Source of the DNA: Hyphomicrobiales bacterium | Lineage (GTDB): Bacteria > Pseudomonadota > Alphaproteobacteria > Rhizobiales > Rhizobiaceae | Length of the DNA: 64,000 bases | Assembly (NCBI GenBank): GCA_900466475.1 | Contig: UBMI01000020.1 | Location: 62,001-126,000 of the forward strand | Direction: 5' to 3' | Shown: piece after piece, positions 33,693 through 47,988 of the stretch | How positions within the stretch are numbered: position 1 is the first letter of the stretch | Layout of the letters: each line of letters starts with the position of its first letter | Program-made: the position numbers and the translations under genes | Notes under the pieces: model-generated | Database searches by the model: none | Told to the model about the DNA's origin: nothing | What the model saw: only the letters and a program-made list of their open reading frames with translations

Positions 33693-34754
33693 TCAGTTCA
33701 AGGCCGGTTCGCCAACGGTGATGCGTTGCTCGCCTTCGTCGAACAGATGGACGGCATCGTGGAGCGGGGCGATCCGCAGGATATCGCCGGGGGCTGCTCT
33801 GATCCGCTCCCGGAACACACAGCTGATGGTCTGGGTGCCAAGACGGGCAATTACCAATGTTTCGGATCCCGTCGGCTCGACCACGGCAGTCGTCACCTCG
33901 ATCCCGTTGGGATCGAGCGCGAGGTGCTCGGGGCGAATGCCGTAGGTGACGGCGCCGGAAGGGCGCCGCTCGCTCGGCAGGATAAGCCCGTCTGTCGTCC
34001 GGAAACCTTCATTCGTCATGTTCCCCCTGATGAAGTTCATGGCGGGTGAGCCGATGAAACCGGCGACGAAGAGGTTGCTCGGGCGGTCGTAGAGTTCGAG
34101 CGGCGAGCCGGACTGCTCGATCAGGCCGTCCTTCATCACGACAATCTTGTCCGCCATTGTCATCGCCTCGATCTGATCGTGTGTGACGTAGATCGTTGTT
34201 GTCTTCAGCCGCTGATGCAGTTCCTTGATCTCCGTGCGCATCTGGACGCGGAGCTTTGCATCGAGGTTCGACAGCGGCTCGTCGAACAGGAAGACGGCAG
34301 GGTCCCGAACGATCGCGCGGCCCATGGCAACGCGTTGCCGCTGACCGCCCGACAGTTGCTTCGGATAGCGTTCCAGGAGGGCCTCAAGGCCGAGGATCTT
34401 GGCGGCATTGCCGACGCGCTGATCGATCTCCGTCTTCGCCATACGCTTCAGCCGCAGAGAGAACCCCATATTCTTGGCGACCGTCATATGCGGATAGAGG
34501 GCATAGTTCTGGAACACCATGGCGATGTCGCGATCCTTCGGCGCCAGCTCGTTGACGATATGCTTGCCGATCTGGATCTCGCCCGAGCTGATGTCTTCCA
34601 GACCCGCGATCATCCTGAGAAGGGTGGATTTTCCGCAGCCCGAGGGGCCGACGAGGACGACGAACTCGCCGTCACGGATATCGACCGACACACCTTTGAT
34701 GGCTTTGAACGCACCGTAATCCTTGCGCGCATCGTTCACTCTAACATGAGCCAT
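33693..34754 (-). CDS. sugar ABC transporter ATPase (UgpC/MalK type)
   Basis: 353-aa ATPase. Walker [10 protein letters not shown] (about 38-46), signature LSGGQRQR, Walker [12 protein letters not shown] and the H-loop YVTHDQIEAMT are intact. A C-terminal regulatory OB-type domain (from about residue 240, with YGIRPEHLAL) marks it as a CUT1-family sugar importer subunit. It is the last gene of the - strand operon that begins with the binding protein at 40076, so it very likely powers the permeases at 36941-38709. Confidence 0.93.
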   Translation of the reverse strand: MAHVRVNDARKDYGAFKAIKGVSVDIRDGEFVVLVGPSGCGKSTLLRMIAGLEDISSGEIQIGKHIVNELAPKDRDIAMVFQNYALYPHMTVAKNMGFSLRLKRMAKTEIDQRVGNAAKILGLEALLERYPKQLSGGQRQRVAMGRAIVRDPAVFLFDEPLSNLDAKLRVQMRTEIKELHQRLKTTTIYVTHDQIEAMTMADKIVVMKDGLIEQSGSPLELYDRPSNLFVAGFIGSPAMNFIRGNMTNEGFRTTDGLILPSERRPSGAVTYGIRPEHLALDPNGIEVTTAVVEPTGSETLVIARLGTQTISCVFRERIRAAPGDILRIAPLHDAVHLFDEGEQRITVGEPALN

Positions 34755-34775: not shown

Positions 34776-35633
34776 TCAGAGCTTGTCCAACACGTTTCTG
34801 AGGTAGGCGAGGCCGAGGCGTTCCCCCTCTTTTCGCGCTTCGAGATCCTTGCCCGGCCATCCGTAGGCGGCGTCCTCGTGCTCGATCGAAAGCGTACCGT
34901 CGAAGCCGTTGCTCCGCGCCTGGCGCAGGAAGCGCTGCCAGTCGAGAAGGCCCTTGCCCGGCAGCTTGTATTGCCACCAGCCCTTGCCGTGATAGCCGAC
35001 GGCCTGCTGGGTGGCGGCATCGATTGCGGTATCCTTGGCATGGAGAATGGCAATGCGATCCTTGACCGCGTCCATCGCCGCATAGGGATCGACGCCGATG
35101 CGGATGAGGTGCGACGGGTCGAATTCAAGACCGAAGCGGGGGCTTGGAATGCGCTTGAAGAGCTCCTGCCAGCCCTTCGGCGTCGTCCCGACGAAATTAT
35201 CCTTGGGGCCGGGCCAGTTTTCGATTGCGAAGACGAGACCGCTTGATGTCGTCTTGGCAATCAGCTCGTTGGCAAAGGCGGCAAAATCATCGTAGTTGGC
35301 TTCGTCATCGGCACTGTCGTCGCGTCCAGGAAAGATCACGAAGATCGGCACGCCGGCTTCGCCGATCGCCTGGGCAAATTCCTCCGTTCGGACGCGAAGC
35401 GCGCCGCGCTTGCCACTGTCAGCATCGAGCTGATTGCCGAAATAGGTAATCGAGGAGACGAAGAGGCCGTGGTCGCGGGCAAGTGCGACGGCAGCCTGCA
35501 CCTTGTCCGGCGTCTTGATATGGCCACCGACATCGATTTCGATCGCGTCGAAACCTGCAGATGCCGCGAAATGCACCACTTCCTCGAGCGGCCGGTCGTT
35601 GAATGTCGACGTATAAAAGCCAATCCTCATCAA
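34776..35633 (-). CDS. sugar phosphate isomerase/epimerase-like TIM-barrel protein
   Basis: 285-aa xylose-isomerase-like barrel protein. The start RIGFYTSTFNDRPLEEVV and metal-site blocks FAIENWPG, GLEFDPSHLIR, ILHAKDT and LSIEHEDAAYGW supply the Glu, Asp, His and Glu ligands of a divalent metal. It probably isomerises or epimerises the imported sugar or its keto derivative. The neighbours are a ROK regulator and the transport ATPase. The exact substrate is unknown; a mannose- or glycoside-derived sugar fits the operon. Confidence 0.82.
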   Translation of the reverse strand: MMRIGFYTSTFNDRPLEEVVHFAASAGFDAIEIDVGGHIKTPDKVQAAVALARDHGLFVSSITYFGNQLDADSGKRGALRVRTEEFAQAIGEAGVPIFVIFPGRDDSADDEANYDDFAAFANELIAKTTSSGLVFAIENWPGPKDNFVGTTPKGWQELFKRIPSPRFGLEFDPSHLIRIGVDPYAAMDAVKDRIAILHAKDTAIDAATQQAVGYHGKGWWQYKLPGKGLLDWQRFLRQARSNGFDGTLSIEHEDAAYGWPGKDLEARKEGERLGLAYLRNVLDKL

Positions 35634-35661: not shown

Positions 35662-36900
35662 TTAATTGCTCAAACGATCCATGAATTTGAGGGGCGATCG
35701 GGTGCGTTGCACAGCATCGGCGGATGCCAGCATCAAGGCCGCTGCCATCGGCATTGCCGCCGCACCGAGGGCTGAAGCATCCTCGCCGATCGAGGCACGA
35801 TGCAGCGTAGGCAGAGTGCTGTCTCCAGCCGTCAGATGTTCGTGGACGTAGCGCAGCAACTCGTCGATCATGCGGATCGGCAGCCTGCCGCCAATGATGA
35901 TGGCGTCGGGATCGACGATCATGCCGATATGCTTGACCGCCACGGCAAGGTGAGCGCTCATTTCCTTCAGCCACTTCGACACCAGAGCCTTGCCGCGCGC
36001 ATCGAGCGTCAGGAGATCCTGAGGCACGCTTGCACGGACGCCGTGCTCGCCAAGAAACTTGTAGAGAAAAAACATCGTCACCACCTCGCCGAGAAGATCG
36101 ACCTTCGGTGCGGTCTTGTCCCGGTCGTCGGCAATCGGCAGCCAGCCGATCTCGCCGCTCAGCGCCATGGCGCCGCGATGGCCATTGCCGTCGAGAACGA
36201 GTCCCCCGCCGAGGCAGGCATTGATGGCGATATAAAAGAAGCTGCGGCTTTCCGCCCCGAGGCCATAGTCGAGCTCCGCAAGTGCGGCCGCATTGGTCTC
36301 ATTTTCGATGAAAACCGGATGCTGCGTCAGGTTTTCGAGTGCTGCGCGTACGTCGAATTCCATCCATTCCGAATAGTCTTCGGGCATGCCGAGGAAGGGG
36401 ATCTCCCCGAGCCAGTCGGGCATGGCGAGCCCGATGCCGGCCAGGTGCGCGTCGTCGATCAGCCGGCTTCGCTGGAAATGCGATATTGCGTCGGCCGTCA
36501 GCTGCATGAATTCGGCAGGACGCACATAGCGCTTTTCATGGTGAACGCGGGCGCGCACGTTGCCGACGGCGTCAACGGCGACAATCGTCAGGTGATCGCG
36601 ATCGATATTGATGCCGATTGCGAAAAACGCATCGGGGTTGATTTCGAGCTCGATTGCCGGTTGGCCTCTCAACCCATGGCGCCGGCGAGCCTCGATGATC
36701 AGGCCCTCGTCGAGCAGGCGATCGACGATCCGTGCGATCGCCGGCTTGGTAAACCCGGTCTGCCGCGCAATTTCGGCACGCGAAATCGGTGCCTGCCGAT
36801 GGACACAACGCAGCACGACGGCCCTGTTGTGCTCGCCCGCATCCTCGACATTGGCCCCCGTCAGATCGGGGGACAGTCTGGCGCCGGTCATCTGGTTCAT
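35662..36900 (-). CDS. ROK family transcriptional regulator (operon copy)
   Basis: 412-aa regulator. The N-terminal winged helix (HRQAPISRAEIARQTGFTKP, IVDRLLDEGLI) precedes a ROK sugar-binding domain (IGINIDRDHLTIVAVDAVG, ALSGEIGWLPI, DAIIIGGRLP). The usual zinc cysteines of the ROK family (CxCGxxGC) are not present. It lies between the permeases and the isomerase of the transporter operon and probably controls it, together with, or in competition with, the second ROK protein at 41416-42552. Confidence 0.87.
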   Translation of the reverse strand: MNQMTGARLSPDLTGANVEDAGEHNRAVVLRCVHRQAPISRAEIARQTGFTKPAIARIVDRLLDEGLIIEARRRHGLRGQPAIELEINPDAFFAIGINIDRDHLTIVAVDAVGNVRARVHHEKRYVRPAEFMQLTADAISHFQRSRLIDDAHLAGIGLAMPDWLGEIPFLGMPEDYSEWMEFDVRAALENLTQHPVFIENETNAAALAELDYGLGAESRSFFYIAINACLGGGLVLDGNGHRGAMALSGEIGWLPIADDRDKTAPKVDLLGEVVTMFFLYKFLGEHGVRASVPQDLLTLDARGKALVSKWLKEMSAHLAVAVKHIGMIVDPDAIIIGGRLPIRMIDELLRYVHEHLTAGDSTLPTLHRASIGEDASALGAAAMPMAAALMLASADAVQRTRSPLKFMDRLSN

Positions 36901-36940: not shown

Positions 36941-37783
36941 TTACCCTTTCACCGCGCCGCTGGTCATGGCGCCGAGGATCAGCCGCTGGAGCGACAGGAA
37001 CGCCACGATCGCCGGTACGACGGAGATCAGGCAGGCGGCCGCAAGCAGCTGGATGGACGAGTCGGTCTGCATGCCACGGAAGTTAAAGATCCCGACGCCG
37101 ATCGGCATCAGATTGTTTTGCGTCAGCAGAAGAAAAGGCACGAGGAATTGTGACCAACCGGCAATGACGGTGATGATGAAGACGGAAGCAATGCCCGGCG
37201 CCGAAAGCGGCAGGACGATCCGCCAGAAGACCGAAAACCGATTGCACCCGTCGATCATCGCAGCTTCATCGAGGCTGCGCGGAATGCCGTCTATCGTGCT
37301 CTTCAGCAGCCACGTTGCGAGCGGTACACCGAGGGCAATATAGACCATCGTCACCGCAAAATGCGTATCGAGCAGGCCGAGACGGTTCATGTAGCGGTAG
37401 AGCGGCACCATGATGACGAGGGGCGAGATCATCTGGAACAACAAGAGCCCCATCATCGACAGGCCCTTGCCGCGGAACTGGAAGCGGGAGAACGCATAGG
37501 CCGCCGGCAGTGCGACGACCAGAACGCCGAAACCGCTGAGTGCTGCGAGTTTCAGGCCGTTCCAGAGATAGATCGGGAAGTAGCTGTTGTTGAGGACCGT
37601 AACGAAATTATCGATCGTCGGGTTGTGCGGTATGTAGCGTGCCACGCCGCGATAGATTTCGCGTTTGTCACGCACGGCCATCGACAGGAGATAAGAGAGT
37701 GGACCGGCGAAGAAGATGAACATCACCAGCATGAAGAGGTAGCTCAGGAAGTCGCCGAAGCGCGTGCCGGTACGCCTGCTCAT
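36941..37783 (-). CDS. sugar ABC permease, MalG-like
   Basis: 280-aa inner-membrane permease with six transmembrane segments. The EAA loop reads LDEAAMIDGCNRFSVFWRIV, the contact site for the ATPase. An N-terminal periplasmic region has the MalG pattern (NFVTVLNNSYFPIYLWNGL). It overlaps the MalF-like gene by four bases and forms a heterodimer with its product. Confidence 0.92.
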   Translation of the reverse strand: MSRRTGTRFGDFLSYLFMLVMFIFFAGPLSYLLSMAVRDKREIYRGVARYIPHNPTIDNFVTVLNNSYFPIYLWNGLKLAALSGFGVLVVALPAAYAFSRFQFRGKGLSMMGLLLFQMISPLVIMVPLYRYMNRLGLLDTHFAVTMVYIALGVPLATWLLKSTIDGIPRSLDEAAMIDGCNRFSVFWRIVLPLSAPGIASVFIITVIAGWSQFLVPFLLLTQNNLMPIGVGIFNFRGMQTDSSIQLLAAACLISVVPAIVAFLSLQRLILGAMTSGAVKG

Positions 37784-38709
37784 TGCTCTTCCTCCTTCGG
37801 CAGGAACGATGCGTAAACGACGGCAAGCCCTAGGCTGATGATCAGCATCAGCACGGAAAGCACGCTGCCGCCGGAAAGGTCGTAATTGCGGAAGACGATG
37901 TTGAATACGTAAAGCGAGATCACCTCGGTCGCACGTCCGGGTCCGCCGCCCGTCAGCGTGATGATCGCATCGAACGTGTTGAGCGTCATGATCGTGATGA
38001 GGATCATGTTGACGAGCATGGCTGCACGCAGCTGGGGGAGGGTGATGAAGAAGAACTGTTGCGGGCCTGTCGCGCCGTCGACATCAGCCGCCTCATAGAG
38101 CGAAGGGTCGATCGATTTGAGGGCGGCGTACATGACGACCATCGAGAAGGCCGTGCCGCGCCAGATGTTCGAGATCAGCGCCGACCATGGCGCGATCGCC
38201 GGATCGGAAAGCCATGCGACGGTCGGCAGGTGCATGAGCCGCAATATGCTGTTCAGCGCCCCATACGGAGCTTCCGAAAACAGCATCTGCCAGATGATGC
38301 CGCCGGCAATGCCCGGGACCACCCAGGCGACAAGCGCCGTGGTGCGTAGGATCGTCGTGCCGAACAGTCCGCGTTTTTCACCTCTGATGACGACGACGGC
38401 GACGGCGAGACCAAAGATCTGCTGTCCAATGACACTGCCGCCAACGAAGATAAGGGTCGCCCACATGATGTCGGGCAATTGCGGTGAGCTCAGCGCATTC
38501 GATATCGTGCTGAGCGTATAGACCGGATTGTCGCCGATCAGCGTCGCATTGGTGAAGGACAGACGAAAAACGTCGATCACGGGGTAGAGATAGAAGATGC
38601 CGATGACGACAATCACGGGCATGATCCAGGGCAACGGCGCCCCGGCAAAACGGCGCATGAACGATCTGCTGTGAGGCGGGCTGGCAGCCTCGATGGCAAT
38701 GGGGCTCAT
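37780..38709 (-). CDS. sugar ABC permease, MalF-like
   Basis: 309-aa permease with six transmembrane segments. The EAA loop is LYEAADVDGATGPQQFFFI, and TLTGGGPGRATEVISLYVF is the conserved MalF C-terminal block. The ATG at 38709 starts at MSPIAIEAA just before the first membrane segment; a longer frame to 38766 has no ribosome binding site. Second gene of the operon. Confidence 0.92.
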   Translation of the reverse strand: MSPIAIEAASPPHSRSFMRRFAGAPLPWIMPVIVVIGIFYLYPVIDVFRLSFTNATLIGDNPVYTLSTISNALSSPQLPDIMWATLIFVGGSVIGQQIFGLAVAVVVIRGEKRGLFGTTILRTTALVAWVVPGIAGGIIWQMLFSEAPYGALNSILRLMHLPTVAWLSDPAIAPWSALISNIWRGTAFSMVVMYAALKSIDPSLYEAADVDGATGPQQFFFITLPQLRAAMLVNMILITIMTLNTFDAIITLTGGGPGRATEVISLYVFNIVFRNYDLSGGSVLSVLMLIISLGLAVVYASFLPKEEEQ

Positions 38710-38777
38710 TGGGCTTCTCTGTCCGGGTTTGACATGACCGGCGGCGCCCGTCACGGGCGCCGCCATGATCTCAATCG

Positions 38778-40076
38778 TCAGAGACGCTTGTAAGCCTCCA
38801 TCGTCGCGTTGAACGCGCCGTCCAGTGCCTCTTCCGGCTTCTTGGTGCCGGACAGCACGTCGCCCATCATGATCTGGATCTGGTTGGAGATTTCCGGATA
38901 GATCGGGGCGCCCGGACGAGCCTGACCATCGACGAGAGCCCCGGCGAAGGTCTTGTTGGCTTCGGTCGCGAAGACATCATATTTGTCGAAGAGCGACTTG
39001 CGCGTCGGCAGCTGCTGCTGCAGCGCATTGGCCGGTCCCATATAGACCTCGCGGGCAAGGTTGGCACACATTTCCACCTTGTCCTTGTCCTTGCTGAAGG
39101 AGGCGATCGTCCATCCGCCGGTACCCGTCGAACGCTGATCTGCGGTCGGGCCGGGGATCGGCGAGAAGGTCCAGTTCTTGAACTCTTCTTCGTCGAGCGT
39201 GACCTTCAGCTGGGCATACTGCCAGTTGCCACCGATGAAGAGCGCAGTGGTTCCGGCTGCCGCGGCGGCGTTGAGGTCGTCATAATTGCCGATGGTCGTC
39301 ACGCGTTTGGGCGCTGCACCGGAATCGACGAGGTCCTTGTAATAGGTCAGGGCCTTGAGGAATTTCTCCTTGTTTTCACCTTCACCGAAGATCGGCTTGC
39401 CGGAATCGTCGACGAGCTTGCCGCCGAGCGCCCAGTAGTTCGCCAGCCAATCGAAGGTGGAACCTTCATAGCGACCGGCATTGAAGAGGATACCTTCCAT
39501 GCCCTGTTCGACGGAGGAGAGCCCGGCCTTCTTCAGGTCGTCCCAGGTTTGCGGCGCATCGGCAACGATGGATTTATTGCGGTAGAGCACGCGAAGATCC
39601 GTGTCCCACCACCATGCACGGATCGTCTGGTCCTTGTCGGTAATGCCGTCGCGGATGAAGGGGAACAGGTCGGCGACTTCTTCCTTCGAGAAATAGGGGG
39701 TGAAGTCGGCAAGCACATGGTTGACCATGAACTGCGAGAGCACGAAGGAGTCGACTGCGGCGCAATCCGGAGCGTTGCCGGCTTTGGCCTGTTCCAGCAT
39801 CTTGGCCTGTTCGGTGCCGATATCGGCCGACATGAACTGCATCTGCAGCTTCCAGTCGGGATGCTTCTTAATGAAGTCGACGAAAAGTTTCTGATAGCCC
39901 TCGGCGATTGCCGGATCGGCATTGTTGGGACTGTCGTTGGTGAGCCGGACGACAAGGGTTTTTGGTGCGTCGGAAGCGCCGATTCTGTCTTTTGTCGCAA
40001 GCTCCTGGGCAAATGCGGCAGGCACTGAAAATAACATTGTGCTCAGCGCTAATGCGCCGATGAACGCTCTCTTCAT
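38778..40076 (-). CDS. extracellular sugar-binding protein (family 1)
   Basis: 432-aa periplasmic solute-binding protein of the CUT1 sugar transporters. The signal peptide ends at VPAAFA (residue 23). Family blocks GNAPDCAAVDSFVLSQFM, LYRNKSIVADAPQTWDDL and ALFIGGNWQYA are visible. The ATG at 40076 is preceded by GGGGAGGAG. It is the first gene of the operon, read from the promoter at 40155-40182. The ligand is probably a mannoside, judged from the co-regulated GH38 mannosidase. Confidence 0.9.
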   Translation of the reverse strand: MKRAFIGALALSTMLFSVPAAFAQELATKDRIGASDAPKTLVVRLTNDSPNNADPAIAEGYQKLFVDFIKKHPDWKLQMQFMSADIGTEQAKMLEQAKAGNAPDCAAVDSFVLSQFMVNHVLADFTPYFSKEEVADLFPFIRDGITDKDQTIRAWWWDTDLRVLYRNKSIVADAPQTWDDLKKAGLSSVEQGMEGILFNAGRYEGSTFDWLANYWALGGKLVDDSGKPIFGEGENKEKFLKALTYYKDLVDSGAAPKRVTTIGNYDDLNAAAAAGTTALFIGGNWQYAQLKVTLDEEEFKNWTFSPIPGPTADQRSTGTGGWTIASFSKDKDKVEMCANLAREVYMGPANALQQQLPTRKSLFDKYDVFATEANKTFAGALVDGQARPGAPIYPEISNQIQIMMGDVLSGTKKPEEALDGAFNATMEAYKRL

Positions 40077-40152: not shown

Positions 40153-40170
40153 TTAGATTAAGTTACTTTG
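40153..40170. promoter_or_regulatory. operator A of the mannoside regulon
   Basis: TTAGATTAAGTTACTTTG matches operator B (42636-42653, opposite strand) in 17 of 18 bases. The core AAGT-N-ACTT is palindromic. It overlaps the spacer and -10 of the transporter promoter, so a bound protein would block transcription. Likely ligand: one of the two ROK regulators. Confidence 0.65.
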
Positions 40171-40182
40171 ATTTGATGTCAA
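40155..40182 (-). promoter_or_regulatory. promoter of the transporter operon
   Basis: On the - strand TTGACA (40182-40177) and TAATCT (40160-40155) are 16 bases apart. The distance from -10 to the start codon at 40076 is about 80 bases. The same arrangement occurs before the mannosidase gene. Confidence 0.6.
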
Positions 40183-40353
40183 GCCGCAGCTTGGGAGGAT
40201 TGAGATGCCGGCGACATTCAACACAAGTTAGCGCGCGCCAGCCGCATTTCCCGATCACAGAAAATCGAGCCATTTCGGGCATCCGCAATGGCGTGGTGAG
40301 GTCTTTGCCCCGGCTGCGTGAGGTGGCCGAGCCTGACATCTATGGAGGATAAG

Positions 40354-41400
40354 ATGCGCTTACTCATTCTCGGCACTGGCGGGATGGCCAACCAGCATGC
40401 TGCAAATTTCAAGGCGATCGACGGCGTCAGCGTGGTGGGAGGCGTCGACGTCGTTCCCGAACGGCTGGCGGCCTTCTGTTCGGAACACGGCATTCCCAAC
40501 CATTTCAGTTCGCTGGAAGAAGCTCTTGCGTGGGGCGAGTTCGATGCCGTTGCCAACGTCACGCCTGACCGCATTCACCACCCGACGACGCTTCAGGCGA
40601 TCGCGGCCGGCAAACATGTCTTCTGCGAAAAGCCGTTGGCGACCGACGCCACCAAGGCGATGGAAATGACCGATGCCATCGAAAAGGCCGGCAAGGTCGG
40701 CATGGTCAACTTCACCTATCGCAATTCTCCTGCCCTGCAGAAAGGCCGGCAGATGGTCCTTGCCGGCGAGATCGGCGAGGTGCGCCATGTCGAGGCATCG
40801 CACCTGCAGAGCTGGCTCGTCGGGCGCCATTGGGGCGATTGGAAAACAGAAAGCAAATGGCTGTGGCGGCTCAGCAAGAAGCACGGCTCGAACGGCGCGC
40901 TCGGGGATATCGGCATCCATATCGTCGATTTCGCGTCCTACGGGTCGGGATTGGACGTCGCCCATGTCTTTGCGCGGCTCAAGACCTTCAACAAGGCACC
41001 GGGTCACAAGATCGGTGAATATGATCTCGATGCGAATGACAGCTTCACGATGAATGTCGACTTCACGACCGGGGCGATTGGCACCATCCAGGCGACGCGA
41101 ACCGCTGCCGGCCAGATGGATCAGTTGCGTCTCCGGGTCTATGGCGAGACAGGCTCAGTCGAGATGATCTACGATACAGGAAAGTCGAAGCTTCGCGCCT
41201 GCCTTGGTGAAGACGTTCACACCGCCACATGGCGCGATATTCCCTTCGACCCGGTCGAAACCAATTACCAGCGCTTCGTGCAGGCGGTGAGGGCGGGCAA
41301 GAGGCAGGAACCGTCGTTCCGCCGCGCAGCGAATATCCAGAAGGTGCTCGACAAGGCGCTTGCCTCGGATGCCAGTCACAGAGACGAGGCGCTTGGCTGA
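40354..41400 (+). CDS. Gfo/Idh/MocA family oxidoreductase
   Basis: 348-aa NAD(P)-dependent dehydrogenase or oxidative glycosidase-type protein. The Rossmann motif is GTGGMA at residues 7-12, EKP lies in VFCEKPLA, and GALGDIGIHIVDFA carries the catalytic Asp/His region. GGAGG lies five bases before the ATG at 40354. It is transcribed away from the transporter operon and converges with the ROK gene at 41416-42552. It likely oxidises the imported sugar or a derivative; the substrate is not known. Confidence 0.88.
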   Translation: MRLLILGTGGMANQHAANFKAIDGVSVVGGVDVVPERLAAFCSEHGIPNHFSSLEEALAWGEFDAVANVTPDRIHHPTTLQAIAAGKHVFCEKPLATDATKAMEMTDAIEKAGKVGMVNFTYRNSPALQKGRQMVLAGEIGEVRHVEASHLQSWLVGRHWGDWKTESKWLWRLSKKHGSNGALGDIGIHIVDFASYGSGLDVAHVFARLKTFNKAPGHKIGEYDLDANDSFTMNVDFTTGAIGTIQATRTAAGQMDQLRLRVYGETGSVEMIYDTGKSKLRACLGEDVHTATWRDIPFDPVETNYQRFVQAVRAGKRQEPSFRRAANIQKVLDKALASDASHRDEALG

Positions 41401-41415
41401 GCCGACTTGGCCGGT

Positions 41416-42552
41416 TCAGGCTGATACCGGCGGCAGCAGGGTGTTGAGGAAGGGCAGCAATGCCGCCCCTAGCGCCACGCCGCCGCCACTGAAGCTTGCC
41501 GGCTTCATCGGCGAAATCCATGGCGTCAGGAAAGGGCGCTTGGATGTGTCGCGCCGTTCGACGGAGAGCTGGTGGATCAGCGCTTCGATCACGCTTCGCG
41601 GCAGGTCGCCGCCGATCATGATGACACCTGGCGCGATGAAGCCGGCCATGGCGATGATGGGATCAAGCAGGTGGCTTGCGGCATCGCGGATCCACTGCGT
41701 CAATTGAGGTGAAGACGGCTCCTCGCCCGCGACGAGCCGCCCGAACTCGTCCTCGCTGACCAGTGCGCGCAGGGCGCCGAAGCCGACCACGGCGTTCAGC
41801 CGGACATTGTCGGGGCCGGTCAGCATTTCGCCGATACTGCCCGCGCGTCCGTGAACACCGGAATAGGGGATACCGCGAACGAGGAAGCCGGCCTGGACAT
41901 CTTCATCGATTATGATCATCGCCAGTCCGCCTTCGGGGGCGGGCGCGCCGATGGTGCGCTCGGCAAGCAGGCTTGCGGTGCACTCGTTTTCCACGTGGCT
42001 GGCCGGAAGCGTCGATGCTGCGTCGAGTTCATCGCTTTCCGCTGCCGTCCAGTCATTGGACCCGATCCCCAGGCCGATGATCGGCAAGCCGACATGCCGG
42101 CCGATCATGTTTTCCGTTACCGAAAGGATTGACGGGACGCGCGTTGCCGGGGTGAGGGGAAAATATTCGCGATCATGGACCTGGCCGCTGAGATCGATCA
42201 GCACCGCTTCGCCTCGGCTTTGGCGAACCCTGATACCGATCGAGAAGGCTCCATCCGGCCGCAGGGCAAATTCCGCCGCAGTGGCGCTGTTGCCCGCGCC
42301 GTTGCGGCGGTGCGACGTCACCAATCCTCCGTCACTCAGGCGGCGCAGGATATTGGTGATGCCCGGACCGGTAAGTCCGGAATGCTGGCCAAGTTCCGTC
42401 CGGGTCAACGGACCATGTCGGCGGATCGCTTCCAGGATGACGCGGATATTTCTGTCGGCGATTTCTCCCGACCGCAGACCGATTGTTTTACCCCGCGTAA
42501 CGGCCGTTTCCTCTGCCTGACGTCGCCGCGGCCCGGATCGAAGATACCGCAT
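41416..42552 (-). CDS. ROK family transcriptional regulator (second copy)
   Basis: 378-aa regulator with an N-terminal winged helix (HGPLTRTELGQHSGLTGPGI, RRLSDGGLV) and a ROK domain (FSIGIRVRQSRGEAVLIDL, GRAGSIGEML, GVIMIGGDLP). Zinc cysteines are absent, and the kinase-type DxGxT phosphate motif is not seen, so it is a sensor and not an active kinase. It is divergent from the GH38 mannosidase gene, and the intergenic region contains operator B. It is the more likely owner of the shared operators. Confidence 0.85.
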   Translation of the reverse strand: MRYLRSGPRRRQAEETAVTRGKTIGLRSGEIADRNIRVILEAIRRHGPLTRTELGQHSGLTGPGITNILRRLSDGGLVTSHRRNGAGNSATAAEFALRPDGAFSIGIRVRQSRGEAVLIDLSGQVHDREYFPLTPATRVPSILSVTENMIGRHVGLPIIGLGIGSNDWTAAESDELDAASTLPASHVENECTASLLAERTIGAPAPEGGLAMIIIDEDVQAGFLVRGIPYSGVHGRAGSIGEMLTGPDNVRLNAVVGFGALRALVSEDEFGRLVAGEEPSSPQLTQWIRDAASHLLDPIIAMAGFIAPGVIMIGGDLPRSVIEALIHQLSVERRDTSKRPFLTPWISPMKPASFSGGGVALGAALLPFLNTLLPPVSA

Positions 42553-42623
42553 GACCGTCTTCCCTAAGCACCTGAATGCTTGTGTATCACAGGCAAAACT
42601 CTAGCAACTTATTTCTTGTGCGC

Positions 42624-42651
42624 TTGACGTGAAAACAAAGTTACTTAATCT
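42624..42651 (+). promoter_or_regulatory. promoter of the alpha-mannosidase gene
   Basis: TTGACG (42624-42629) and TAATCT (42646-42651) are 16 bases apart, the same layout as the transporter promoter. The leader to the ATG at 42764 is about 105 bases. Confidence 0.6.
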
Positions 42652-42653
42652 AA
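42636..42653. promoter_or_regulatory. operator B of the mannoside regulon
   Basis: CAAAGTTACTTAATCTAA is the reverse complement of operator A with one central mismatch. It takes the same position over spacer and -10 of its promoter. Confidence 0.65.
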
Positions 42654-42763: not shown

Positions 42764-45700
42764 ATGTCTCTCACTATCGCCCAACGTCTCGATCGTCTGA
42801 AAGTCCGTACAGCCGAGCTTGCTCACTGGCGCGACCGGCAAAGCGTTGTGATCGACGGCTGGACCTTCGACGGCGAGCCGATCGCCCATCATCAGGATTG
42901 GCCGCACCGCAACGGGACGGTTCATTTCGCGGCGTCCGCGGCCGCACCGCGCGACTGGCCAATCGAACAGGTTCGCCTGCAGCTCGATCTCGGCGGCGAA
43001 AGCTTGATCACATTGCACTATTCGGGCGGTGAGGCCGAGACATTCGGTCTCGACCCCTACCATCAGGAATTCCCGATCAAGGGCAAGGAGTTTTCAATTG
43101 CGACCGAAAGCGTTGCACGCTTTCCCTTCGGTGAGCCGAACCGGGCGCCGAAGCTCAACAGGGCGCGGCTGATCTGGCTGGATGAACCGGTCCATAAACT
43201 GCACCTTCTGTTGCGGCAGCTCGGCGAAGCCGCCGATGTGCTGGAAAACCATGAGGTCTTGCCGCACCTCATCGAGGCGGCCGAACAGGTGCTGCGCAGC
43301 CTCGACTGGCCTTCGGACACGTCAGCCTATATTTCGCGCACATCCGGTGCGGTCATGCAGCAGAAGATCTGGGAACTGCCGGAACTGCAGGAAAACCCGG
43401 CCGGCCTGACGGAAACACAAAGTGCTTCGGCCGCAGCGGCCTATGATCAGCTGGTCGCGCGTCTGAAAGAGCTTCAGAAGCGGTTCCCGCCGAATGGCGA
43501 GCTGTTGCTCACTGGCCATGCCCATATCGACCTTGCCTGGCTCTGGCCCTATCGCGAGACCCGCCGGAAGATGCGCCGCACCTTCAATACCGCGCTCTCG
43601 CTGATGGAGCGGTCGGACGACTTCCGGTTCAACCAGTCGACCGCTCATTATTATGCGCAGATGGAAGAGGACGATCCGGAGCTTCTCGATCGTATCAAGA
43701 AGAAGGTCGCCGAGGGCAAATGGGAAACGGTCGGCGGAATGTGGGTCGAACCCGACACCAACATGCCGACCGGCGAAAGTCTTGCGCGGCAGGTGCTTTA
43801 CGGGCAGCGCTATTTCGAAAAACATTTCGGCCTGCGCCACACGGTCTGCTGGCTGCCTGACTGTTTCGGCTTTTCGGGCGCCTTGCCGCAGATCCTGAAG
43901 CTCGGCGGAATCGACAGCTTCTTCACCATCAAGGTGAACTGGAGCGAGACCAATCATATTCCATCCGATCTTTTCTGGTGGAAGGGTCTCGATGGAAGCA
44001 AGGTTCTGACCCACACATTCGATAATCCCATGCATGGCTATAATGGTTTCGTGCAGCCGGATTGCTTCGTCCCGACCTGGAAGAATTTCCGCGGCAAGAC
44101 GCAGCACGATACGTCGCTCCTGGCAGTCGGCTATGGCGATGGCGGCGGCGGCGTGACACCCGAAATGGTCGAGCGCGAAGTGCAACTGCGCGACTTTCCG
44201 GCGATCCCCAGTGCGCGCTGGGGCACGGTGAAGGGCTTTTACGAAAAGGCCCACCGTACTGCGGAGGAAAAAGAGCTTCCGGTATGGGACGGGGAAATCT
44301 ACCTTGAACTGCACCGTGCGACGCTGACCTCGCAAAGCGGTGTCAAGCGCAAGCACCGGCAGGCCGAGCGGGCGCTCATTACTGCGGAGACGATCGCTTC
44401 ACTTGCGCACTTGCTGGGTGCCGGTAAGCCGGAAAGCCTGGAAGCGGACTGGCGCGTCGTCCTTAAGAACGAGTTTCATGACATCCTGCCGGGATCGAGC
44501 ATTCGCGAGGTCTATATAGATGCCGAGCAGGAGCTTGACGGCGTGATCGTCAATGCCGGGGCAGATCAGGCCAAGGCTTTGAAGGCGCTGTCGTCCCAGC
44601 TTCCGGCAGGCGGACTGACGGACGCGGTCATTGCCGTTAATCCGTCGCTCGCGCCGCGACCCCTGACCGCCAGGCTTTCGGATGGAACGGTCTTGTCATC
44701 TGCCGATATTGTCGCTCCGCTTTCCGTCGCAGTCTTCGATCGCAGGGCATTGAAGCCGGCCGGCATGCTGAAAGCCGATGCGCACAGCCTCGAGAACGAA
44801 CATCTGTCTGTCGTCATCGGCAAGGATGGCGCCGTTTCGAGCCTCGTCCACAAGGCAACGGGCAGGGAGGCGGTCGAAGGCGGGGCCAATCAGCTCTGGG
44901 TCTATCCGGCCGATAAGCCACGCAACTGGGACGCATGGGATGTCGATGCCGACTATGCGGAAAAGGCCGTCCGCCTCGACAAGCCCGAAAGCATCACACT
45001 TGTCGAACAGGGACCGCATCGCGCGGCGATCCGTGTCGTCCATCGATACCGGAACTCGACGGTCACCCAGCTTTACGCGCTGACCGCGAATGGCCGCAGG
45101 CTCGATATCGAAACGACGATCGACTGGCACGACCGGCGCACTCTGCTGAGAACACTGAACCCTGTCGCCGTGCGGTCCCGTACAGCCACTTTCGAATGCG
45201 CCTTCGGTATCGTCGAGCGCCAGACGCATACGAACACTTCCTGGGAACAGGCGATGTTCGAAGCTGCGGCGCACCGTTTCGTCGATCTCAGCGAGCCGGG
45301 CTTCGGTGTCGCGCTGCTGAACAATGCCAAATACGGGCATAGCGCACGCGGCAATGTCATCGGCATGAGCCTCGTGCGCTCACCGATTTATCCCGATCCG
45401 CTCGCCGACGAAGGCGAGCAGAGCTTTACCTATGCGCTGATGCCGCATGAGGGCGCCTGGCATGAAGGCGGGGTCCTGCAGGAGGCGATCGATCTCAACC
45501 AGCCGCTCGTTACCGGCGAGTCAACCGGGCTCTCGGCAGGCACGCTGTCGCCGCTCGGCGTCGAGGGCATACCGGTCGCTTTTTCGGGACTGAAAGCGGC
45601 GGAGGATGGAGAGGGCCTTATCCTGCGGCTTTACGAGCCGGCAGGCCGCCGCGGGCAGCTTTCGCTTGCCCTGCCCTCCGGCTGGCAGTCTTCGGGACCT

Positions 45701-45790
45701 CTGAACATCCTCGAAGAGCCGATCGAACGTGCAGGCCCTGCCGACATCATGCCGTTTGAAATCCGGACCTGGCGGCTGCAACAAAGCTAA
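42764..45790 (+). CDS. alpha-mannosidase, glycoside hydrolase family 38
   Basis: 1008-aa cytosolic (no signal peptide) GH38 enzyme that cleaves alpha-mannosides with retention, using a zinc site. The N-terminal domain (1-240) precedes the catalytic domain that opens GHAHIDLAWLWPYRETRRK, with zinc ligands His254 and Asp256. GMWVEPDTNMPTGESL gives the nucleophile Asp region, and LPDCFGFSGALPQIL and KNEFHDILPGSS are conserved. The middle helical domain and the large beta-sandwich C-terminal domains follow. ATG 42764 (MSLTIAQRLDRL) is preferred to 42629, which lies in the promoter. It would act on mannosides brought in by the transporter of the same regulon. Confidence 0.92.
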   Translation: MSLTIAQRLDRLKVRTAELAHWRDRQSVVIDGWTFDGEPIAHHQDWPHRNGTVHFAASAAAPRDWPIEQVRLQLDLGGESLITLHYSGGEAETFGLDPYHQEFPIKGKEFSIATESVARFPFGEPNRAPKLNRARLIWLDEPVHKLHLLLRQLGEAADVLENHEVLPHLIEAAEQVLRSLDWPSDTSAYISRTSGAVMQQKIWELPELQENPAGLTETQSASAAAAYDQLVARLKELQKRFPPNGELLLTGHAHIDLAWLWPYRETRRKMRRTFNTALSLMERSDDFRFNQSTAHYYAQMEEDDPELLDRIKKKVAEGKWETVGGMWVEPDTNMPTGESLARQVLYGQRYFEKHFGLRHTVCWLPDCFGFSGALPQILKLGGIDSFFTIKVNWSETNHIPSDLFWWKGLDGSKVLTHTFDNPMHGYNGFVQPDCFVPTWKNFRGKTQHDTSLLAVGYGDGGGGVTPEMVEREVQLRDFPAIPSARWGTVKGFYEKAHRTAEEKELPVWDGEIYLELHRATLTSQSGVKRKHRQAERALITAETIASLAHLLGAGKPESLEADWRVVLKNEFHDILPGSSIREVYIDAEQELDGVIVNAGADQAKALKALSSQLPAGGLTDAVIAVNPSLAPRPLTARLSDGTVLSSADIVAPLSVAVFDRRALKPAGMLKADAHSLENEHLSVVIGKDGAVSSLVHKATGREAVEGGANQLWVYPADKPRNWDAWDVDADYAEKAVRLDKPESITLVEQGPHRAAIRVVHRYRNSTVTQLYALTANGRRLDIETTIDWHDRRTLLRTLNPVAVRSRTATFECAFGIVERQTHTNTSWEQAMFEAAAHRFVDLSEPGFGVALLNNAKYGHSARGNVIGMSLVRSPIYPDPLADEGEQSFTYALMPHEGAWHEGGVLQEAIDLNQPLVTGESTGLSAGTLSPLGVEGIPVAFSGLKAAEDGEGLILRLYEPAGRRGQLSLALPSGWQSSGPLNILEEPIERAGPADIMPFEIRTWRLQQS

Positions 45791-45957: not shown

Positions 45958-47988
45958 ATGACGGAATCCGTAAAATCCGTACCGGCGCCCCGCGATCAGC
46001 ACCTTCGCGACATGGCCGATTGCATCCGGTTCCTCTCGATGGATGCCGTCGAGAAGGCCAAGAGCGGGCACCCCGGCATGCCGATGGGCATGGCGGACAT
46101 TGCCGTCGTGCTCTTTTCCGAATTCCTGAAATTCGATGCCGAAGACCCATACTGGTTCGATCGGGACCGTTTCCTGATCTCCAACGGGCACGGTTCGATG
46201 CTGCTTTACAGCCTGCTCTACCTGACCGGTTACCAGGATATGACGATCGATCAGATCAAGAACTTTCGTCAAATTGACAGCAGGACGGCAGGTCATCCCG
46301 AATACCGCCATGCGACGGGCATCGAGACGACCACCGGGCCGCTCGGCCAGGGCATTGCCAATTCGGTCGGTTTTGCGCTTGCCGAGCGCATCATGAACGC
46401 CAGGTTTGGCGACGATCTTTCAAGTCATTACACCTATGTGTTCCTGGGTGACGGATGCCTGATGGAAGGCATCAGCCAGGAGGCCATATCGCTCGCCGGC
46501 CACTTGAAGCTCGGCAAGCTGATCGCATTCTGGGACAACAATTCGATCTCGATCGACGGGGCGACAAGTCTGGCGGAATCCGACGATCAGCCGGCGCGGT
46601 TCCGTGCATCGAACTGGCATGTGCAGGAGATTGACGGACACGATACGGACGCGATCCGCGACGCAATCGTCGAAGCGCAGCGGGTCACCGATCGCCCGTC
46701 GTTGATTGCCTGCAAGACCATAATCGGTTTCGGCTTTCCGACGCGCGCCGGTACGCAGAAGGCTCATAGTGACGCGCCGGGCGAAGAGGAGATCGCCGGC
46801 GCCCGCAAGATTCTGGGCTGGACCGCGCCTCCCTTCGAGATCCCGTCCGGCCTGATGGAAGACTGGAGGAAGATCGGCGCCAAGGGACGCAACGCCCGGA
46901 TGGCCTGGGCGGTCCGGGTCCAGACGGCGAAGGCGGATGTTCGCGCTGACTTTGAGCGCCGCATGAAAGGCGAACTGCCTTCAGACTGGACCAGCGCAAT
47001 AGAAGCAGCAAAACAGGAGCTTCTGTCTGCCGACAAGGATTTGGCGACCAGACAGGCGAGCGGGATTGTTCTCAACCACCTTGCCGAAGCCCTGCCCGAG
47101 CTTCTCGGCGGATCGGCGGACCTCACACCGTCGAACAATACGAAAGCCAAATCCATGGTCGAAATTGCGCCGGGCCAGTATAATGGATCCTATATCCATT
47201 ATGGCGTGCGCGAACATGGAATGGCCGCGGCCATCAACGGGATTGCCCTTCATGGCGGGCTGATCCCTTACGGCGGCACCTTCCTGACCTTTTCCGACTA
47301 CGCTCGTCCGTCCATCCGGCTGGCGGCAATGATGGCGGTGCGTTCGATCTTCGTGATGACACATGATTCGATCGGTCTCGGCGAAGATGGACCGACGCAT
47401 CAGCCCGTCGAACATCTGACGGCGCTGCGCGCCATTCCGGGCCTTGCCGTGTTCCGTCCGGGCGACCCGATCGAGACGGCGGAATGCTGGCAGGCCATTC
47501 TCGATGCCCCACGGCAGGCAGCCCTGATCGCTCTATCCCGCCAGCCCATGCCGCTTCTGAGGAAGCAGCCAGGCCCACTCAACTTGTCGGCAAAGGGCGG
47601 ATATGTTCTGCTCGAGGCTGAAGGTGGGGCGCGCGAGCTGACCATCATGTCGACGGGATCGGAATTGCACCTTGCTGTCGAAGCAAGGGCGAGGCTTCAG
47701 GCGGAAGGCGTTCCGACCGCGGTCGTGTCCATGCCGTGCCGGCTGCTGTTTGAGGCGCAGGCACCGGACTACAAGCGTGAGGTTCTCGGAGACGGGACCG
47801 CGCGCGTCGCGGTGGAGGCAGCTGTCCAGGATAGCTGGGACCGATATCTCGGGCTCGATGGCCGGTTCGTCGGCATGCACAGCTTCGGCGCGTCCGGCAA
47901 GATCGACGATGTCTACAGGAAATTCGACATCACCACCGACGCAGTTGTGAAAGCCGCGCGGGGAACGCTGGGGCTTCGCCGTCGGTGA
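45958..47988 (+). CDS. tkt: transketolase
   Basis: 676-aa thiamine-diphosphate enzyme that transfers two-carbon ketol units between pentose, hexose and tetrose phosphates. Blocks seen: KSGHPGMPMGMADIA, ISNGHGSMLLYSLLYL, TTGPLGQGIANSVGFA, the TPP/metal site FLGDGCLMEGISQEA...DNN, HYGVREHGMAAAINGIALHG with the catalytic Glu, and THDSIGLGEDGPTHQPVEHL. It is full length with GAGGA before the ATG. As it stands apart from other pentose-phosphate or Calvin genes and follows sugar-catabolic genes, it may be a second copy serving this region; that is inference. Confidence 0.95.
   Translation: MTESVKSVPAPRDQHLRDMADCIRFLSMDAVEKAKSGHPGMPMGMADIAVVLFSEFLKFDAEDPYWFDRDRFLISNGHGSMLLYSLLYLTGYQDMTIDQIKNFRQIDSRTAGHPEYRHATGIETTTGPLGQGIANSVGFALAERIMNARFGDDLSSHYTYVFLGDGCLMEGISQEAISLAGHLKLGKLIAFWDNNSISIDGATSLAESDDQPARFRASNWHVQEIDGHDTDAIRDAIVEAQRVTDRPSLIACKTIIGFGFPTRAGTQKAHSDAPGEEEIAGARKILGWTAPPFEIPSGLMEDWRKIGAKGRNARMAWAVRVQTAKADVRADFERRMKGELPSDWTSAIEAAKQELLSADKDLATRQASGIVLNHLAEALPELLGGSADLTPSNNTKAKSMVEIAPGQYNGSYIHYGVREHGMAAAINGIALHGGLIPYGGTFLTFSDYARPSIRLAAMMAVRSIFVMTHDSIGLGEDGPTHQPVEHLTALRAIPGLAVFRPGDPIETAECWQAILDAPRQAALIALSRQPMPLLRKQPGPLNLSAKGGYVLLEAEGGARELTIMSTGSELHLAVEARARLQAEGVPTAVVSMPCRLLFEAQAPDYKREVLGDGTARVAVEAAVQDSWDRYLGLDGRFVGMHSFGASGKIDDVYRKFDITTDAVVKAARGTLGLRRR

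What the first reader, a model, noticed from the sequence alone, without database searches (positions are those of the whole stretch)
40153..42653. Shared promoter-operator cassette links the ABC transporter and the GH38 mannosidase
Both promoters read TTGAC[A/G]-16-TAATCT and carry the same 18-bp element (one mismatch) in the same phase over spacer and -10, on opposite strands 2.5 kb apart. The core AAGT-N-ACTT is palindromic. This defines a small regulon: binding protein, permeases, ROK regulator, isomerase, ATPase and alpha-mannosidase. The close match over the whole promoter suggests a duplicated control cassette or strong selection.
Basis: seen in the sequence. Interest (0 to 1): 0.65.

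Follow-up and report, generated by a model that had tools for sequence, protein, structure and literature searches.

The report
Shared promoter switch for mannoside use
Two neighbouring gene sets in a soil bacterium, one that imports a sugar and one that cuts mannose off sugar chains, share the same 30-letter promoter sequence; relatives carry it in front of the same genes, and it usually stays with the enzyme gene even when that gene has moved far away.

Summary
Both promoters read CTTGAC...TAATCT with a 16-bp spacer and agree at 26 of 30 bases; no other site within 3 mismatches of the 17-bp core exists in the 7.2-Mb genome. It behaves like a regulator site. In 148 genomes of the genus it precedes the binding-protein gene in 112 of the 112 that have that gene. 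Among close relatives GH38 carries its own copy in 82 of 84, even when unlinked; the two exceptions lack the transporter and both ROK genes, and there the element is eroded (one of the two assemblies is only 73% complete). In other arrangements GH38 sits inside the transporter operon under one copy. A DNA-only search of the order found the same module in 9 genomes of another family.

Corrections: the palindrome is not significant and is broken in relatives; the conserved unit is an asymmetric ~30-bp promoter-operator; it belongs to GH38, not to the adjacent ROK gene. The likelier binder is ROK1 (35662-36900), encoded in the operon it would control; ROK2 is not excluded. Three genomes keep the module but have a GH38 without the element. 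Binding, repression and inducer are inferred. A well-supported small regulon of a known kind.

The parts
40153..40183 (-). promoter-operator element of the transporter operon, CTTGAC to CTAA
   Evidence: before SBP in 112 of 112 SBP-bearing genomes of the genus
42623..42653 (+). promoter-operator element of the GH38 gene, CTTGAC to CTAA
   Evidence: own copy in 82 of 84 GH38 genes of 83% identity or more
38778..40076 (-). solute-binding protein (SBP) of the sugar ABC importer; signal-like N-terminus by eye
   Evidence: Pfam SBP_bac_8 and SBP_bac_1
37780..38766 (-). permease A (longest ORF; true start not determined)
   Evidence: Pfam BPD_transp_1
36941..37783 (-). permease B
   Evidence: Pfam BPD_transp_1
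35662..36900 (-). ROK1, the likelier regulator that binds the element; gene of the transporter operon
   Evidence: Pfam ROK 88.9 bits, cut-off 22.9; fold; conserved DNA-binding part
34776..35633 (-). sugar isomerase-like TIM-barrel protein
   Evidence: Pfam AP_endonuc_2
33693..34754 (-). ABC ATPase, MalK/UgpC type
   Evidence: NCBIfam UgpC subfamily 498 bits, cut-off 432
40354..41400 (+). Gfo/Idh/MocA oxidoreductase, divergent from SBP; membership of the regulon unknown
   Evidence: Pfam
41416..42552 (-). ROK2, second, diverged ROK regulator kept with the module
   Evidence: Pfam ROK below cut-off (19.2 of 22.9); ROK fold by model; present in all 112 SBP genomes of the genus
42764..45790 (+). 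GH38 alpha-mannosidase, Ams1-like, no signal-like N-terminus by eye
   Evidence: four GH38 Pfam domains; closest solved chains include Ams1

Best explanation
The two promoters carry one regulator-binding element, about 30 bp and asymmetric, laid over the -35, the spacer and the -10 of a housekeeping-type promoter. A local sugar-responsive ROK regulator, most likely ROK1 from the transporter operon itself, binds it and blocks RNA polymerase until an imported alpha-mannoside or its breakdown product releases it. That opens the transporter operon and the GH38 gene together and lets ROK1 control its own synthesis. In relatives GH38 is a gene of the transporter operon; in this Rhizobium lineage it stands alone and keeps its own copy of the element. 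Shown: the element, its conservation, its tie to these genes, its erosion where the module is missing. Inferred: ROK1 as binder, repression, inducer, substrate, copying as the origin of the second cassette.
For: Element before SBP in 112 of 112 SBP-bearing genomes of 148; in 56 of 56 named loci before SBP, in 30 of 30 before GH38 when GH38 is in the flank, and no second element in 26 of 26 when it is not, so it goes with GH38 and not with ROK2. 82 of 84 GH38 genes (83% identity or more) keep a copy 106-145 bp upstream, also on other contigs or far away. The two exceptions, G341 and G366, have no SBP, ROK1 or ROK2 match and carry eroded elements. A DNA-only search of 347 genomes of the order gave 17 matches, 16 of them at promoters of this module, control 0. 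ROK1: in the element-headed operon in the arrangements seen; 33 of 63 DNA-binding residues invariant against 91 of 349 elsewhere, ROK2 10 of 70 against 23 of 308.
Against: ROK2 is kept as faithfully as ROK1 (112 of 112), so co-occurrence cannot tell them apart. The site lacks the dyad expected of a homodimer, although sites of the ROK regulator RokB also lack perfect inverted repeats (PMC4856308, passages). G308, G311 and G347 have transporter, both ROKs and the element before SBP, but a free-standing GH38 of 71-73% identity without it. G341 is only 73% complete, so its missing genes are less certain. No expression or binding data.
Confidence: 0.62

Rival explanations
1. ROK2, not ROK1, binds the element and controls both units; ROK1 has another target or only senses.
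For: ROK2 is present in all 112 SBP genomes, lies between the two promoters here, and its helix-turn-helix is more conserved than the rest of it (10 of 70 against 23 of 308 invariant).
Against: Its DNA-binding part, wing included, varies strongly while the element hardly changes. It has no element of its own when GH38 is elsewhere (26 of 26 named loci; 15 further upstream regions with 6-9 mismatches at best).
Confidence: 0.17
2. The conserved unit is mainly a promoter type read by a special sigma factor, and no ROK protein binds it.
For: It spans -35 to -10 at constant spacing.
Against: A sigma factor would be expected to serve many promoters; the genome holds 2 such sites. The element erodes where the regulators are missing although GH38 stays.
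Confidence: 0.06
3. A mixed ROK1-ROK2 pair binds the asymmetric site.
For: The site is asymmetric; ROK1 and ROK2 are distant paralogues and occur together in 112 of 112 SBP genomes of the genus, in 4 of 4 carriers from other genera of the family, and in the 8 of 9 genomes of the other family whose stretch runs far enough.
Against: No mixed pair of ROK proteins is known to me (recall, not searched); asymmetric ROK sites have a precedent.
Confidence: 0.12

Closest known systems
Local ROK repressors of sugar operons (Lmo0178 of Listeria with operator structure 5f7q, Mlc of E. coli 1z6r; seen; XylR and NagC as operon regulators recalled)
   Same: Winged-helix plus ROK fold, gene within or beside a sugar operon, site over the promoter
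   Different: Two ROK paralogues kept together; site asymmetric and unusually conserved; effector unknown
RokB of Streptomyces coelicolor (PMC4856308, passages read)
   Same: ROK regulator with about 30-bp sites, some without a perfect inverted repeat
   Different: Another sequence and another gene set; RokB is linked there to amino acid metabolism
CUT1 transporter SMc04256-9 of Sinorhizobium meliloti with an adjacent putative beta-mannosidase (PMC3454389, passages read)
   Same: Rhizobial CUT1 importer paired with a mannosidase gene
   Different: Beta-mannosidase, not GH38; no shared operator described in the passages seen
Ams1-type alpha-mannosidases (6lz1)
   Same: GH38 domain set, similar length, no signal-like N-terminus by eye
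   Different: Bacterial and tied to an ABC importer; activity untested

Membership tests
ROK-family regulators (ROK1) | ROK domain above the Pfam cut-off with an N-terminal winged helix | tested here: met
   PF00480 88.9 bits (cut-off 22.9), MarR-type HTH; fold match to 7rhe and 5f7q
ROK-family regulators (ROK2) | ROK domain above the Pfam cut-off | tested here: not met
   19.2 bits against 22.9
ROK-family regulators (ROK2) | Winged helix plus ROK fold | tested here: met
   model pLDDT 82; 7rhe E 1.7e-24, 5f7q E 6.2e-21
ROK-family regulators | Binding of the element and release by a sugar | not testable with these tools
   needs gel shift and expression tests
ROK operators | Inverted repeat | tested here: not met
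   no dyad above shuffles; the claim that it is regulated by ROK is weakened, not excluded, as RokB sites show
Regulon (shared operator) | Site conserved before the same genes independent of their place | tested here: met
   exceptions G308, G311, G347
GH38 alpha-mannosidase | GH38 N, middle and C domains | tested here: met
GH38 alpha-mannosidase | Cleaves alpha-mannosides | not testable with these tools
   enzyme assay needed
CUT1-type sugar ABC importer | SBP, two permeases and a MalK/UgpC-type ATPase | tested here: met
   substrate not tested

The most novel reading that the evidence does not exclude
Two ROK paralogues, always kept together, bind one asymmetric ~30-bp operator as a mixed pair, each reading one half: a two-input ROK switch, perhaps sensing two different products of mannoside breakdown, fixed across two families of the order and carried along when the enzyme gene stands outside the operon.
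Probability: 0.12. Interest if true: 0.65.

Novelty: new member of a known kind. Interest (0 to 1): 0.45.

Why it matters
It gives a ready-made, testable regulon for a rhizobial system that probably imports and cleaves mannosides, with sites mapped in more than 100 genomes. It also records, in living relatives, the same enzyme gene inside and outside an operon, with a copy of the operon's control element when outside, and decay of that element where the module is missing. If the element needs both ROK proteins it would be an unusual kind of ROK switch.

Tried and rejected
Palindrome as the recognition unit: rejected, no dyad above shuffles. Element as the promoter of ROK2: rejected, it goes with GH38. 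Special sigma-factor promoter: made unlikely by the count of 2 sites in the genome. Telling ROK1 from ROK2 by broken copies: failed; the stops flagged in ROK2 of G377 and G378 lie at the very end, and the matched stretch of G364 reads open. A larger duplicated block round the cassette: only a borderline likeness of the two leaders, which both hold GGAGGAGAC, a ribosome-binding-like string (P 0.044), and none upstream (P 0.24); copying of a longer segment is not shown. Change of the recognition helix of ROK1 (TKP against TKQ) goes with the centre base of the element (A or T against G) in the 28 representatives, but this is one split in the tree, so it is not counted as evidence.

Papers: searches (Rhizobium + alpha-mannosidase + ROK family + ABC transporter; Rhizobium leguminosarum + mannosidase + pRL12; ROK family + Rhizobium + transcriptional repressor + operator; Mlc + operator + cryo-EM + ROK) returned 0 papers. 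Searches returned lists, of which I saw titles and starts of abstracts. Passages only were seen in PMC3454389, PMC4856308, PMC3333776, PMC11103875 and PMC7674921; none of those passages names this regulon. PMC7674921 describes a database of predicted motifs that includes R. leguminosarum 3841 and R. etli; I could not open the database, so this motif may already stand there as a prediction. The library is open-access papers only.

Full report
OBSERVATION. The two promoters are as described. On the minus strand TTGACA (40182-40177), 16 bp, TAATCT (40160-40155); on the plus strand TTGACG (42624-42629), 16 bp, TAATCT (42646-42651). The 18-mers differ at one base. The window holds 2 matches to the 17-bp core within 3 mismatches against 0.04 expected, and the 7.2-Mb genome holds only these 2, against 13 for the reversed control. 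A looser family-wide core finds one further site, with 3 mismatches, against 2 for its control. Between the two cassettes 26 of 30 bases agree from TTGAC to CTAA; outside there is little or nothing.

PARTS. The operon under the first promoter reads SBP, permease A, permease B, ROK1, isomerase-like protein, ATPase. A Gfo/Idh/MocA oxidoreductase diverges from it; ROK2 is convergent with that gene and divergent from GH38. GH38 has four GH38 domains and its closest solved relatives include Ams1. R. johnstonii 3841 has the same set on plasmid pRL12 (RL_RS34670 to RL_RS34710).

THE ELEMENT FOLLOWS THE GENES. In 56 Rhizobium-group loci fetched with ROK2 as bait (L038-L093; L094, a 23%-identical Clostridium hit, was dropped) the element, within one mismatch, stands before SBP in 56 of 56. 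GH38 lies in the flank in 30 of the 56 and has its own copy in 30 of 30; in the other 26 there is no second element, so the region upstream of ROK2 has none. Over 148 genomes of the genus: SBP in 112, ROK1 in 112, ROK2 in 114, of which two (G013, G018) are partial and lack SBP and ROK1, GH38 in 130. The element, within two mismatches, precedes SBP in 112 of 112: 61 by coordinates at 75-77 bp, 20 fetched, the window, and 30 in other fetched or listed stretches. GH38 of 83% identity or more has its own element 106-145 bp upstream in 82 of 84 genomes, one of them with one mismatch, including genes on other contigs or far from the transporter (for example G020, G012, G280, G306).

THE NATURAL KNOCK-OUTS. 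The 2 of 84 without a match within two mismatches are G341 and G366. They are the two of the 84 with no SBP, ROK1 or ROK2 match at the limits used. G366 (99% complete) keeps CTTGACGCCAAAACAAAGTTACTTAGTTTAG, changed at the right end; G341 has lost the left half. G341 is only 73% complete, so its missing genes are less certain. GH38 is open in G366 and has one in-frame stop in G341.

OTHER ARRANGEMENTS. In 24 genomes with GH38 of 62-66% identity one element precedes SBP-permease-permease-GH38-ROK1, with ROK2 convergent (23 fetched; G329 by coordinates; in G378 GH38 is in two pieces). In G330 GH38 is the last gene of a seven-gene operon under one element; in G309, and in G003 across contigs, it lies between permease and ROK1. 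Of 218 genomes of the family, 8 have an SBP at the limit used, 4 of them in other genera; these 4 have the arrangement of the 24, three with a close element and one (G147) with a weak one. In the GH38 tree (39 rows) the free-standing genes with their own element form one clade, with the in-operon G330 as sister (99/99 for the pair, 94/93 for the clade); deeper branches hold in-operon genes and also free-standing genes without the element (several forks weak, one outlying row very long). So for this clade leaving the operon looks derived.

RESULTS AGAINST. G308, G311 and G347 have transporter, ROK1, ROK2 and the element before SBP, but their GH38 (71-73%) is unlinked and has no element. In all, 14 free-standing GH38 upstream regions (11 of 71-74%, two of 63%, one of 42%) show only chance-level matches, 10-13 mismatches of 24 informative positions, where random stretches gave 8-14. 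Four further free-standing genes (G010, G024, G320, G321) were not read, but their genomes have no match within two mismatches. Thus 109 of 112 SBP genomes place GH38 under the element: 82 by its own copy, 27 in the operon, of which G003 is inferred across contigs.

BLIND TEST. The pattern CTTGACNNNAAANNAAAGTNAYTTAATCTA, built from sites of this family, was searched in 347 genomes of the order with up to 3 mismatches. It gave 17 matches in 14 genomes, control 0. Seven lie in the genus at known module promoters. Nine, without mismatch, lie in nine genomes of one genus of another family, and each stands before SBP-permease-permease; in 8 of the 9, GH38, ROK1 and convergent ROK2 follow, the ninth contig ending before them. 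One 3-mismatch match (G502) has no module gene in the 14 kb read. An earlier scan of 218 family genomes with the shorter core and one mismatch gave 6 genomes, of which two outside the genus (G185, G103) showed no element-headed module in the 3 kb read, so single chance hits do occur with that core.

FORM OF THE ELEMENT. Averaged over four groups of sites the most conserved positions are CTTGAC, AAA, AAAGT, A and TTAATCTA; the centre base is A before SBP and T before GH38 in nearly all of this clade (G282 and G373 are exceptions), G in the others. No dyad exceeds shuffles.

WHICH REGULATOR. Both ROK proteins are ROK regulators by fold and paralogues of each other (hhalign 99.9%), although ROK2 falls below the Pfam cut-off. 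ROK1 is favoured: it lies in the operon headed by the element in the arrangements seen; its wing, EARRR-x-GLRGQPAIELEI, is nearly invariant in two families (G147 differs at two places); 33 of 63 DNA-binding residues are invariant against 91 of 349 elsewhere in 18 representatives, whereas ROK2 has 10 of 70 against 23 of 308. ROK2 cannot be excluded, nor can a joint action, because it is kept just as faithfully.

MECHANISM. From the overlap with spacer and -10, occlusion by a repressor is the likeliest reading, with release by mannose or a mannoside; this rests on general knowledge of ROK repressors, not on data here. The Ams1-like enzyme and the CUT1-type importer suggest alpha-mannosyl oligosaccharides, such as high-mannose glycan fragments, taken up and trimmed inside the cell (inference).

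VERDICT. A real, old and tightly kept control element for a small, probably mannoside-related regulon. I found no description of it in the searches named in Tried and rejected. It is ordinary in kind, with one open and interesting question: the role of the second ROK protein on an asymmetric site.

Noticed in passing
42595-42617: A string AAAACTCT-A/C-GCAACTTATTTCT just upstream of the GH38 -35 also stands before the unlinked GH38 of G338; it may be a second conserved site.
   Followed up: no
L317-L325, L268-L270: In the other family and in three genomes of other genera the ABC ATPase gene diverges from the element and starts about 20-35 bp from it, so one element may serve both directions there; in Rhizobium of this clade the ATPase is the last gene of the operon.
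   Followed up: no
34776-35633 and 40354-41400: The isomerase-like and Gfo/Idh/MocA genes belong to the module only in the window's wider clade; they gave no match in the 24-genome arrangement, in the other-genus loci or in the other family.
   Followed up: partly
G362:C1:119585-120821: In the genome of the same species ROK1 matches in two overlapping pieces (1-280 and 276-412), which suggests a frameshift in the C-terminal domain, while both elements are intact.
   Followed up: no
35662-36900: ROK1 has GEIGW where ROK sugar kinases have a His (ExGH motif, recalled), and this Trp is invariant in 22 of 22 aligned orthologues; the sugar site may be unusual.
   Followed up: no
45958-47988: A transketolase gene follows GH38 on the same strand here and in 7 of the 56 named loci (L038-L040, L043-L046).
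   Followed up: no
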